From the NCBI GenBank assembly GCA_031260705.1, contig JAISLA010000012.1, forward strand, positions 1-56,092: a stretch of DNA of 56,092 nucleotides, in the 5' to 3' direction. The position numbers and the translations under genes were made by a program. The DNA is from Endomicrobium sp. Lineage in GTDB: Bacteria > Elusimicrobiota > Endomicrobiia > Endomicrobiales > Endomicrobiaceae. The notes beneath the pieces were generated by a model. That model made no database searches. It had not been told where the DNA came from and worked only from the letters and a program-made list of their open reading frames with translations. Within the stretch, counting starts at the first letter, position 1. Each line of letters begins with the position of its first letter. Positions 39,010 to 43,648 of the stretch are shown here, in pieces.

Positions 39010-39855
39010 CTATTGCAATTTTAAACTTATTACTTCTTTAAAGCTTTCGCTTATTTCATAACCGACATAATTTCTATTTAATTCTTTTGCTACTTTTAAT
39101 GTTGTCCCTGATCCCGTAAATGGATCAAGTACTAAATCACCTTCAAAAGTAAATAATTTAATGCATCTGCGAACTATCTCTGCCGGCATTATTGCCGAAT
39201 GTTTTCCAAAAGCTAAATCATTTTTATTTGGTATTGCTATATTCCAAATCTGCTTTGTATATTCTACCCACTCTTTTTCTGTTAATTTGCTGCTTTCTTT
39301 AATTTCTGGCGGTAAATTATTAATTGGATTACCGTCTTTTACATTGTATTTTGTGCGTAAAAATTTCGCGGATATGGATAACTACCGAACATTAACTTTT
39401 TACTTGGATTTGTTCTATTCCATATAAACATATCATATAAGAATAAATTAGTATTATTTAAAATTGAATGTTCTATATCGCTGTTTATATTAAAGATATG
39501 TCTATTGTAGTGTGTATTTAAGCTGGCTTTTAACATTGGCATAAGCGGTGTATTTATTATTAATTTCCCATTAGGCTTTAATACTCTTTCACATTCTTGC
39601 CATACAATAAGCATTTCATTTATATAATCAGTGTATTCTTTGATATCGCCAATTTGTCCTTTATGTCTTATTCCTATTTGCTTTGTTTGATAACCATTTT
39701 TTTGAATAGTCTTTAATATTGAAATATGGCGGACTAGTTAATATCATATCTGCAGAATCATTGGGTAATTCTGTCATTTTCCTTGAGTCTTTAAAAAAAA
39801 TTTTGTTTAAGTATTTTTTAGTAGTACTATTATTTAGTTTTTTTCTGTTATTCAT
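39010..39855 (-). pseudogene. DNA methyltransferase (TSPPY type), frameshifted
   Basis: It begins MNNRKKLNNSTTKK at 39855. MILTSPPYFNIKDY is motif IV; SPPY is usual for N4-cytosine enzymes but is also found in some adenine enzymes. A T7 (A7) run at 39697-39703 breaks the frame, after which ECERVLKPNGKLIINTP follows. A second shift in A5 at 39359-39363 leads to TKYNVKDGNPINNLPPE and the SAM motif DPFTGSGTT. The protein ends at TAG 39010, ten bases before the second methyltransferase. The start lies 70 bases after tRNA-Gln. Confidence 0.75.
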
Positions 39856-40886: not shown

Positions 40887-41110
40887 TCTTTTTCGGAATC
40901 AGTCAAAATAAAAATTTTTGCTGCCTATGATATTCCCTTGATTTTCATATCTGAAGAATTAAATTTAATTTTTGACGGAATCTTTGAGATATGCAGATTA
41001 GCATATTTTAAAGTATGAACGGTTATATTGTTTTGTGAAAATCTTTCTATTAGTGTGTCCATATTTAAAGTAAGTTCGGCGTTGTCCTTAATAGAAATAT
41101 GCATCGGCAA
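40887..41110 (-). pseudogene. remnant, possibly LptC-like
   Basis: A 61-codon frame (41110 to 40925) contains TLIERFSQNNITVHTLKYA and KIPSKIKFNSSDMKIKGIS, then a TAG, then in the same frame AAKIFILTDSEKE up to the ispE start. The pattern 'set of residues, KIKF..., MKIKG.., short acidic end' resembles the C-terminus of LptC, the periplasmic LPS-transport protein. The match is by impression only. There is no N-terminal membrane anchor, so in any case it is a fragment. Confidence 0.25.
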
Positions 41111-41795
41111 AATCAGGTGTAAATTCTATTGTCTTGAATATTCTATTTCTTTATTGTATTTTTCTCAATCCATATAATTTAAAGCGGTTAAATAAAGCAT
41201 TTCATTATTTGAATGTTTAGTATCCAGTGCTTGTAAGAAATTTTTTTCAGATCTTTGATAATCTTTAAGTACTGAGTAATAATATCCGAGTCTTGCGAGA
41301 ACTGTAACATTTTTTTCTTTTTTTAAAGCAAGTTTTTCAAACTCCTATATATCAGGTTTTTTCATATATTATTCCAAGCCAGTATCTTATCGTAAGATCG
41401 TCGGGAAATATTTTTTTATTTTTAGAAAAATCTATTCTGCTTTTGTATAATTTTGAGTTTTATAATAGCATTTTCTCAGATATATAAGTGCAAACATATT
41501 GTCCGGAAAGACAGAAATATATTTTTCGTATTCTTTTATCGCCGAATTAAGTTTACCGGTTGCCTCATAAATGCGGGCTTTTGCAATATAAGCGTCTCTT
41601 GCATGAAGCCTAAATATCCTAAAAAGTGTAAGGTTATAAAATTAAAACCAGGCACTTTTTAGGATATTTAGACTTCATTCTTGCGCAAAATTCGTTGACA
41701 AAAAGCCTGGCTGTCCTGTAAAAAACAGGCGTTAAATCGTTAATATCCAGCAGTTTATCCAATGCAAATTTTTGATATTCTGTTAACTCTTCCAT
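41080..41795 (-). pseudogene. TPR-repeat protein interrupted by a palindromic element
   Basis: The gene starts at ATG 41795 behind a perfect GAGGAGGTG site. It reads MEELTEYQKFALDKLLDIN to VNEFCAR, where a 76-bp palindrome intrudes. Removing the element and one copy of the flanking 6-bp repeat rejoins the frame as CAR-DAYIAKARIYEATGK, then SAIKEYEKYISVFPDN, clear tetratricopeptide repeats. Later TPR pieces (FPDDLTIRYWLGIIYEKT, LARLGYYYSVLKDY, TIEFTPDFADAYFY) are spread over all frames, with internal stops. It is thoroughly dead. Confidence 0.75.
41603..41678. mobile_element. 76-bp MITE-like palindromic element with 6-bp target duplication
   Basis: The two ends are 26-bp inverted repeats (41603-41628 and 41653-41678) that differ at one base; they run ATGAAG(C/T)CTAAATATCC and on to AAAAAGTG. 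The centre is 24 bases. The element is flanked exactly by TCTTGC at 41597-41602 and again at 41679-41684. Deleting the element plus one TCTTGC restores the reading frame of the host TPR gene, so this is an insertion and not a native hairpin. It encodes nothing. No second copy was noticed in the window. Confidence 0.8.
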
Positions 41796-41870
41796 TGTTT
41801 TTCACCTCCTCTTTTTATAAATTTTATAAAATTCAATTAGATGTTATTATTAAAAACCAAATAAAACCTT

Positions 41871-42362
41871 TCATTTGGCTTCGAGTACTTGATGTCTGTA
41901 TTTATCAAAAATGTCGTCGGCGACAATTCTGTCTTTATCCTCCAGAAAATTCATAAAACGATTATGCATCTGTTCAATTCCGTCTATGTCTTCTTTATCC
42001 GCCAGTCTAACAAGTTTAATTAGATACTTTTCTATTTCTCTGTAATTTTTGTCAACATTGTTGTTAATATCTTTAACCATTTTTTTCTTTATCTCTAATT
42101 GTCCGCTTGTGGTATACAAATACTCTGCTCCAGCGTTTTTAATGTCCATTCTCGCCGCCGCAACCTCCGATTTTATTGAAAGAATACACTCATTGGCTGT
42201 TTTGCAATCTTTGATGTTCTCGGTGAAGTTTTCACAAAATTTTATAATCCCGTCACGAGAGTTATTTACAGCTTTCTCGTATTTTTCAAACGGGGTCTTT
42301 GCACATCCAGTCACTCCTGCCATCATTATTCCTGCTAACATCAAGCATATTACTTTTTTCAT
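41871..42362 (-). CDS. small lipoprotein of unknown function
   Basis: 163 aa. A type II signal peptide MKKVICLMLAGIMMAGVTGC ends in a lipobox Cys at residue 20, so the mature protein is lipid-anchored. The rest is highly charged and predicted helical (two Cys pairs near 43-60), without a family that I recognise. It is the last gene of a cluster of small minus-strand genes. Its signal peptide resembles that of the coiled-coil pseudogene at the head of the cluster (MKK(V/L)ICLM), which suggests common origin or exchange. Confidence 0.7.
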   Translation of the reverse strand: MKKVICLMLAGIMMAGVTGCAKTPFEKYEKAVNNSRDGIIKFCENFTENIKDCKTANECILSIKSEVAAARMDIKNAGAEYLYTTSGQLEIKKKMVKDINNNVDKNYREIEKYLIKLVRLADKEDIDGIEQMHNRFMNFLEDKDRIVADDIFDKYRHQVLEAK

Positions 42363-42373
42363 TCTAGTTCCTT

Positions 42374-42460
42374 TTATAATGCATTGTATTTTGATTTAGC
42401 ATTTTTGGCAAAATCAAAAATCGCACGTTTGTTGTCTTTCTGTTTTTTTGTTAATTCCAT
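42374..42460 (-). CDS. 28-residue basic peptide, doubtful
   Basis: ATG 42460 follows GGAGG at six bases. The product is basic, MELTKKQKDNKRAIFDFAKN and a short tail. It overlaps the 3' end of the 52-residue gene in another frame, so one of the two may be chance, but the ribosome site and the small-gene context make it worth keeping. No family is recognised. Confidence 0.3.
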   Translation of the reverse strand: MELTKKQKDNKRAIFDFAKNAKSKYNAL

Positions 42461-42572
42461 ATTTTGCCTCCAAATATTTTTTCAAATCTTTCCAATTCTC
42501 ATTTTTCCCATGCCTAAAAACGTATTTCCTGCCGATTTTATTGATAAATTTCGGTTTGGTTTCCTTTTTCAT
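42414..42572 (-). CDS. 52-residue basic protein of the small-gene cluster
   Basis: It starts MKKETKPKFINKIGRKYVF behind GGGAGCGGG. It is lysine/arginine-rich with one WKDLKKYLEAKYG helix and no membrane segment. It begins 14 bases after the stop of the upstream 32-residue membrane peptide, in clean operon spacing. I recognise no family. The small size, strong ribosome site and position in a run of similar genes are the support. Confidence 0.45.
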   Translation of the reverse strand: MKKETKPKFINKIGRKYVFRHGKNENWKDLKKYLEAKYGINKKTERQQTCDF

Positions 42573-42586
42573 TTTCCCGCTCCCTG

Positions 42587-42685
42587 TTATTTCATTATGT
42601 TTCTTGCTACAAGCAATACAAGGTATAAAATTATCGTTCCGACCACCGTCCAGAATATATCGTTATCTAAAATGTTTTCTATCAT
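42587..42685 (-). CDS. 32-residue membrane peptide
   Basis: ATG 42685 follows a duplicated GGAAGTGAAA repeat (42685-42704), so it has two overlapping ribosome-site candidates. It has an acidic N-terminus MIENILDNDIFW, one transmembrane stretch and a basic end (ARNIMK): a holin- or toxin-sized single-pass peptide. In the present sequence it is also in frame with the tail of the upstream coiled-coil gene, because that gene lost its stop through a frameshift. Confidence 0.5.
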   Translation of the reverse strand: MIENILDNDIFWTVVGTIILYLVLLVARNIMK

Positions 42686-42704
42686 TTCACTTCCTTTCAC
42701 TTCC

Positions 42705-43176
42705 TTAAATGTACGTGTCCTTTTTTTTGTTGTAAAGTCTTTGTATTCTGCATAGAGCTTTTCGTATCTACCCCAAACAGAGTTATACTCAGAAATCTTT
42801 TTGTTATATTCCGACACAACTTTATACTCACAAGCGTGTGCTTCATTGTATAAATTCAGGTAATGTTCGTAGTCTTTATAAAAACCTGCCTCATACCTTT
42901 CATTTCATTGATGGACTTTACTCGTCCAGAAGCTACTGTGAGCTTGATTTTTAAGTTTGATAGCTCTAGTTCAATTCCTTTTAACTGACGTTTCATCGAG
43001 TCCAAGCTTGCTTCGTATTCTTTTGTTTTCTTTTCGGCTGGCGATACTGCTTTCCTAATTTCGTTTACTCCCTTTCCAACAGCATAACCGACAACTTTCC
43101 CTGCTATGGCGGATATCACTCCAGCGTGTATGTTTTGTGCAATTAACATCGACATTAAACAAATTAACTTTTTCAT
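42705..43176 (-). pseudogene. secreted coiled-coil protein, frameshifted
   Basis: It starts MKKLICLMSMLIAQNIHAG, a signal peptide, then AIAGKVVGYAVGKGVNE (glycine-rich, possibly membrane-interacting) and a long charged helix region (EKKTKEYEASLDSMKRQL). A missing base near 42898 moves the frame to YEAGFYKDYEHYLNLYN and SEYNKKISEYNSVWGRYEK. An A8 run (42721-42728) has removed the likely original stop at 42705-42707. I know no family. A hairpin (CCGCA/TGCGG, 43220-43233) lies in its leader. Confidence 0.55.
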
Positions 43177-43360
43177 TTTCCTGCTTCCTTTTTTTTAAAA
43201 TTTTCTTAAGCAGCTGCATCCGCAAAGGTGCGGCAATCTAAAAAAAACTTATTATAACGCTATTATAAGAAACTAAAGCCGCGTCATTCATAGCAGGTTT
43301 TTCTTGAATCATTCCTATCTGGAAATAACCTACCGCATTGTCAGGCTATTGCTTTTCTTT

Positions 43361-43648
43361 TCATAATACGGATTCCTTATGGTTAATCAGGTTTAACACG
43401 AGAGCATCTTCATTTTTATAATATTTTTTTCTCGTGCCTATTTCTTTAAACCCAAAAGATTTATATAAATTTATTGCAGCATTGTTGCTTTGTCGCACTT
43501 CAATTGACGGAAAAGACTTAAAATGGCGGAGAAGAGTGCTGCCGGTAAAATATGTTTTAGAACTTTTAACCGTCGCGCGGGTACTAATAGTGGTAGAAAT
43601 ATAAAAAAAACGAAACGAATTTTCCGTTAGAGAACTAACAAAAACCAT
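43361..43648 (-). pseudogene. rimI: rimI-like GNAT acetyltransferase, C-terminal remnant
   Basis: The last 45 residues read IEVRQSNNAAINLYKSFGF, KEIGTRKKYY and EDALVLNL, a clear match to the C-terminus of RimI, which acetylates the N-terminus of ribosomal protein bS18. The upstream half (TVKSSKTYFTGSTLLRHFK) has the wrong residues for the acetyl-CoA loop and no proper N-terminal domain. A full gene would need about 145 residues. I read it as a truncated, frameshifted remnant. Confidence 0.6.

What the first reader, a model, noticed from the sequence alone, without database searches (positions are those of the whole stretch)
41597..41684. A 76-bp palindromic, MITE-like element inserted in a TPR gene, with an exact target-site duplication
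Two 26-bp inverted ends (one mismatch) surround a 24-base centre, and TCTTGC flanks the whole on both sides. Removing the element with one TCTTGC restores the host frame (CAR-DAYIAKAR) and a clear TPR protein. The boundaries are therefore defined by the sequence itself. The element has no coding capacity, so if it is mobile it must be moved in trans. Palindromic elements of this size are known in Rickettsia and as MITEs elsewhere; I know of no description for this lineage, though that is recall only. It is one candidate for an undescribed element family in this genome.
Basis: seen in the sequence. Interest (0 to 1): 0.8.

Follow-up and report, generated by a model that had tools for sequence, protein, structure and literature searches.

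The report
Orphan hairpin bordering a foreign insert
A short, sharply bounded DNA hairpin that looks like a tiny transposon really is there, but it is the only copy in this genome and all relatives searched, and it sits at the edge of a larger piece of lineage-specific DNA inserted in an already dead gene, so its mobility is suggested but not shown.

Summary
The 76-bp palindrome (41603-41678; 26-bp arms, 1 mismatch) and the flanking TCTTGC repeats are real and far beyond chance. TPR homology lies only on the low-coordinate side and stops at ~41599. In relatives the TPR gene continues with sequence found at ~43253 in the window. So a ~1.63-kb lineage-specific block (about 41600 to 43234-43252), with small exported-protein ORFans, interrupts the gene, and the hairpin sits within 0-3 bp of one border of it. 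'MEELTEY...FCAR' is not TPR sequence, so removing the hairpin does not restore the gene. The TPR gene is independently dead: 7 in-frame stops and two large deletions. No second copy turned up in the 81%-complete own genome, 41 congeners, 341 genomes of the phylum, viral contigs, phages, plasmids or E. coli; all 7 paired-arm matches in 84,980 species genomes are unrelated hairpins. No Y1 or DDE_Tnp_1 transposase was found in the own genome. Best reading: a lone MITE-like insertion (TIRs, 6-bp target duplication) moved in trans by an unidentified transposase, next to, and perhaps provoking, a second insertion. Main rival: the hairpin is the end structure of the 1.63-kb block and TCTTGC is coincidence (about 7e-4). 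An 'element family' is not supported.

The parts
41603..41678 (.). 76-bp palindromic element (MITE-like hairpin)
41603..41628 (+). terminal inverted repeat, low-coordinate arm ATGAAGCCTAAATATCCTAAAAAGTG
41653..41678 (-). terminal inverted repeat, high-coordinate arm ATGAAGTCTAAATATCCTAAAAAGTG (read on - strand)
41597..41602 (+). TCTTGC, putative target-site duplication, copy 1 (TCT belongs to TPR homology, TGC does not align to relatives)
41679..41684 (+). TCTTGC, putative target-site duplication, copy 2
40925..41599 (-). TPR pseudogene, main remaining fragment: 7 in-frame stops, about 275 codons deleted near its 3' part relative to congeners
43253..43351 (-). TPR pseudogene, upstream fragment, contiguous with 41599 in relatives (about 20-65 bp apart there); about 480 bp of the 5' part is lost beyond it
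41600..43234 (.). lineage-specific ~1.63-kb block interrupting the TPR gene, hairpin included; right border uncertain between 43234 and 43252
41634..41795 (-). ORF of 53 aa with strong RBS (MEELTEYQKF...), its end runs into the hairpin; no relatives found
41871..42362 (-). ORF of 163 aa with lipoprotein-type signal; paralogue in own genome, 43% identity (G000:C2:89051-89557)
42587..43176 (-). exported coiled-coil/membrane protein gene split by a frameshift into ORFs 42856-43176 and 42587-42817

Best explanation
The 76-bp hairpin is a single, orphan MITE-like insertion: two 26-bp terminal inverted repeats with almost nothing between them, moved in trans by a DDE-type transposase not present in the available sequence, which cut its target with a 6-base stagger and so left TCTTGC on both sides. 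It lies in an eroding TPR pseudogene of a small symbiont-like genome. The 1.63-kb block of exported-protein ORFans starting right beside it is a second event; either the hairpin came first and the palindrome acted as a fragile site where foreign DNA was captured, or it landed later on the junction. Shown: the anatomy, the direct repeat, single copy, the empty site in relatives for hairpin plus block, the independently dead host gene. Inferred: transposition, the trans-acting enzyme, the order of the two events.
For: Palindrome far beyond chance. An exact 6-bp direct repeat abuts sharply defined arm ends; rate about 7e-4 at random. Flanks are repeated directly, not inverted, which fits insertion and not fold-back duplication. 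Relatives with the TPR gene lack the hairpin at this place. In 453 kb of own sequence only this hairpin has flanking repeats, and none of 35 hairpins in 743 kb of own and congeneric stretches has one of 5 bp or more. Size, AT content, TIR length and stem-loop fit published features of prokaryotic MITEs (PMC10969869).
Against: No second copy anywhere searched, so mobility is not shown. No Y1_Tnp or DDE_Tnp_1 transposase in the own genome, though it is 81% complete and other transposase families were not searched. The position within 0-3 bp of the border of an unrelated 1.63-kb block is a coincidence this model must accept or explain.
Confidence: 0.5

Rival explanations
1. The hairpin is the terminal structure of the ~1.63-kb block: the block (short GC-rich leader hairpin, small exported-protein genes, long hairpin at the 3' end of that gene set) entered the TPR gene as one unit, in the manner of elements with hairpin ends that make no target duplication; the TCTTGC repeat is accidental.
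For: The hairpin is within 0-3 bp of the block's border and at the 3' end of its gene set. No clear target duplication surrounds the block, and a small hairpin CCGCA-AAGG-TGCGG lies at the other border. A paralogue of its 163-aa gene lies between carA and carB in the same genome, so such genes spread in this lineage.
Against: An exact 6-bp repeat abutting the arms would be accidental (about 7e-4). The paralogous locus on C2 has no such hairpin. The two end hairpins are unlike each other. No recombinase or transposase in the block.
Confidence: 0.28
2. Foreign DNA of unknown origin (phage, plasmid or other bacterium) was captured by illegitimate recombination; the hairpin was already part of that DNA or arose at the repair junction, and is no mobile element.
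For: Block borders show no clean target duplication and about 18 bp of host sequence is lost or unrecognisable at the right border. The last ORF looks cut at the border. Genome erosion by indels is evident in the host gene.
Against: A repair junction does not explain two 26-bp arms unrelated to neighbouring sequence with direct repeats outside them. No phage or plasmid relative of any block protein was found.
Confidence: 0.17
3. A working RNA structure: terminator, mRNA stabiliser or small RNA at the end of the block's gene set.
For: Position downstream of the gene set; very stable stem.
Against: No T run after the stem on either strand and not found by the terminator scan; no Rfam match; it overlaps an ORF's end and is not conserved anywhere.
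Confidence: 0.05

Closest known systems
Prokaryotic MITEs (type II, similarity confined to the TIRs)
   Same: Size in 50-500 bp, TIRs in the usual range, AT-rich, no ORF of its own, stem-loop, exact flanking direct repeat.
   Different: Single copy in all data; no parental IS with matching ends found.
Rickettsia palindromic elements (RPE)
   Same: Palindromic insertion located in a former coding region of a reduced genome.
   Different: RPEs are ~150 bp, form families of many copies and make in-frame fusions with a conserved peptide (PMC10969869); here one copy, an 82-bp net insertion that shifts the frame, in a pseudogene. Sequence similarity to RPEs was not tested beyond the Rfam scan.
REP / REPIN palindromes mobilised by RAYT (Y1) transposases
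   Same: Palindromic hairpin without coding capacity.
   Different: REPs occur in high copy (>100 per genome, PMC2817692 abstract); here single copy, and no Y1_Tnp in the own genome.
IS200/IS605-type elements and their palindrome-ended derivatives
   Same: If the hairpin belongs to the 1.63-kb block, the layout (hairpins near both ends, no target duplication) would resemble them (recalled).
   Different: No transposase in the block, dissimilar end hairpins, no second copy.

Membership tests
MITE | short (50-500 bp) element with terminal inverted repeats and no transposase | tested here: met
MITE | flanking target-site duplication | tested here: met
   TCTTGC twice, exact and abutting; its origin by transposition is inferred
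MITE | several copies at different places / evidence of movement | tested here: not met
   single copy in own genome, 41 congeners, 341 phylum genomes, viral contigs, phages, plasmids, E. coli; own genome 81% complete
MITE | parental IS with matching TIRs | tested here: not met
   no 26-mer end with <=3 mismatches in 42 congeneric genomes other than the two arms here and one single-sided chance match in a coding-like context; the parent may be lost or unassembled
MITE | empty site in relatives | tested here: inconclusive
   relatives lack it, but they also lack the adjoining 1.5 kb
REP/REPIN | RAYT (Y1_Tnp) gene in the genome and high copy number | tested here: not met
   no Y1_Tnp in own genome, present only in 6 of 42 congeners, mostly as fragments or with stops; single copy
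Rickettsia palindromic element | in-frame insertion that leaves the host protein intact | tested here: not met
   82-bp net insertion, frame shifted, host gene dead
intrinsic terminator | GC-rich stem followed by a T run | tested here: not met

The most novel reading that the evidence does not exclude
The ~1.63-kb block with its terminal 37-nt-arm hairpin is an undescribed kind of small mobile cassette that carries lipoprotein and exported-protein ORFans through reduced symbiont-like genomes, with the hairpin as its recombination end.
Probability: 0.1. Interest if true: 0.6.

Novelty: new member of a known kind. Interest (0 to 1): 0.27.

Why it matters
As a lone MITE-like insertion it adds one orphan element, without a family, to a lineage with strong genome erosion. 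What is more telling is the comparison with relatives: a symmetric hairpin with a clean direct repeat can look like a self-contained insertion in a gene when the actual insertion is twenty times larger and the gene was already dead. It also points to lineage-specific exported-protein genes being inserted into dying genes.

Tried and rejected
Weak BLAST matches in relatives (G030, G052, G089, G056, G025 and others) were read in context: short AT-rich matches, several in coding-like sequence, none with a second arm. The seven paired-arm matches in 84,980 species genomes have unrelated centres (several GC-rich, terminator-like stems), short arms whose pairing does not extend to the ATGAAG ends, and no common outer sequence. 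Fold-back or template-switch origin rejected: it predicts inverted, not direct, flanking copies, and no other copy of the arm exists nearby. Terminator, Rfam RNA: no. Integron-attC-like cassette end considered: by eye the borders lack the GTTRRRY/RYYYAAC motifs (motifs recalled; sequence). G025's TPR gene lacks the segment around the insertion point and could not serve as an empty site. Literature searches showed no paper describing MITE or palindromic families for the suspected lineage; this is weak evidence of absence, open-licence papers only.

Full report
OBSERVATION. ATGAAGCCTAAATATCCTAAAAAGTG (41603-41628) pairs with 41653-41678 with one C/T mismatch; weaker pairing continues inward, so that the arms can be drawn as 37 nt with a 2-nt centre. 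TCTTGC abuts it on both sides. As RNA the strand folds at -41.6 kcal/mol against -12.9 +/- 3.0 for shuffles. Such an arm pair is expected about 5e-5 times per Mb, and a 6-base direct repeat at comparable spacing occurs at about 7e-4 of positions in this window. The structure is real and the direct repeat is probably not accidental.

COPY NUMBER. The own genome (990 kb, 17 contigs, 81% complete) has one copy only. A 26-mer search with up to 3 mismatches in 42 congeneric genomes finds only the two arms here and one match in G030 that is single-sided and lies in a sequence also seen, diverged, in G025, in a coding-like context. The whole 76-mer has no match at E <= 1e-4 in 341 genomes of the phylum. 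Viral contigs have neither the paired arms nor single-arm 19-mers; phages, plasmids and E. coli genomes have nothing. A paired-arm scan of one genome each for 84,980 species gave seven hairpins, all with unrelated centres and outer sequence. The collection scans need exact matches and could miss diverged relatives.

The TPR gene is an open frame of about 630-735 aa in most congeners that have it. In the window its frame has seven in-frame stops besides the hairpin, lacks about 275 codons in its 3' part (the two matched blocks lie about 826 bp apart in G019 but nearly adjoin in the window) and about 480 bp at its 5' part (G019 locus coordinates 6006 to 5521 while the window goes from 43351 to 43393). 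More important, nucleotide similarity to relatives runs up to 41593-41599, stops, and resumes at 43253-43298, two points that are only about 20-65 bp apart in the relatives. The empty site reads TCTCT|AATTTCAGG in G027 and G024; the window reads TCTCT|TGC-hairpin on the left and GGTGCGGC|AATCTAAAA... on the right, with the exact right border uncertain by about 18 bp because the match there is weak. So about 1.63 kb is inserted in the window, and the hairpin is at one border of it. 'Removing the element restores the frame' is thus a chance in-frame join.

THE BLOCK. On the - strand it carries an exported protein gene broken by a frameshift (42587-43176), a 52-aa ORF, a 163-aa lipoprotein-type ORF and a 53-aa ORF with a strong ribosome-binding site whose end runs into the hairpin. 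None has a confident Pfam, PHROG or NCBIfam match, and the searches made for relatives in phages, plasmids and viral contigs were empty. The DNA is absent from congeners. The 163-aa protein has one paralogue in the same genome, 43% identical, between carA and carB on contig C2 (the carA/carB names are my reading of the ORFs), and no long hairpin accompanies it. The block is therefore lineage-specific and one of its genes belongs to a small own-genome family, which also argues against a contaminating or misassembled contig.

MECHANISM. Two facts compete. The exact 6-bp direct repeat abutting the arms favours an independent MITE-like insertion; the hairpin's place within 0-3 bp of the block border favours a structure belonging to the block. 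If both are meaningful, the simplest order is hairpin first, in a host that read TCTCTTGCAATCT, followed by capture of foreign DNA at the palindrome. I give about 0.5 to an independent MITE-like insertion (in either order), 0.28 to a block-end structure, 0.17 to a passive part of captured DNA, 0.05 to an RNA function. Hairpins are rare in this genome: in 453 kb only four of comparable quality, this one alone with a flanking duplication; in 743 kb of own and congeneric stretches 35 looser ones, none with a duplication of 5 bp or more. There is thus no sign of a wider class of such insertions. Neither Y1_Tnp nor DDE_Tnp_1 transposases occur in the own genome; both are scarce, often broken, in the genus. 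Other transposase families were not searched.

KNOWN KINDS. A 2024 review gives prokaryotic MITEs as typically under 500 bp, TIRs of about 4-30 bp, flanking direct repeats in younger ones, AT-rich, stem-loop forming (PMC10969869). The single element meets the anatomy but not the family criteria (copies, parent). It is not RPE-like (frame not kept, one copy) nor REP-like (one copy, no RAYT). [quoted passage not shown]

VERDICT. Observation largely right, interpretation partly right, claim of an 'undescribed element family' unsupported. Interest low to moderate.

Noticed in passing
G000:C2:89051-89557 (L130 7031-7540): Paralogue (43% identity) of the block's 163-aa lipoprotein-type ORF, lying between carA and carB near further short ORFs; no long hairpin there.
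   Followed up: partly
42587-43176: Exported coiled-coil protein with C-terminal membrane segment, split by a frameshift near 42890; a young pseudogene inside the inserted block.
   Followed up: partly
L123 about 1501-1548 (G000:C16:13103-13150): 48-bp stretch 82% identical to the ribosome-binding site and signal-peptide start of the window gene at 43176; perhaps a decayed relative of these exported genes.
   Followed up: partly
L100 1-330 (G000:C16:1-330): An inverted repeat (GGACTCAGTGGAAATCCCCACCGAAGG...) spans the first 330 bases of contig C16, one arm at the contig's very end; no target duplication visible.
   Followed up: no
L098 3825-4068 (G000:C13:163825-164068): 244-bp segment with ~24-bp inverted ends (GCTGCCTCTGAAATATTTATC), no flanking duplication.
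   Followed up: no
39339-39855: Adjacent short ORFs, one with weak similarity to N6/N4 DNA methylases (PF01555), apparently a broken methylase gene.
   Followed up: no
L131, L132 (G026:C43, G017:C17): Y1-type transposase genes in congeners are mostly interrupted by stop codons or fragmentary, suggesting this transposon class is dying out in the genus.
   Followed up: no
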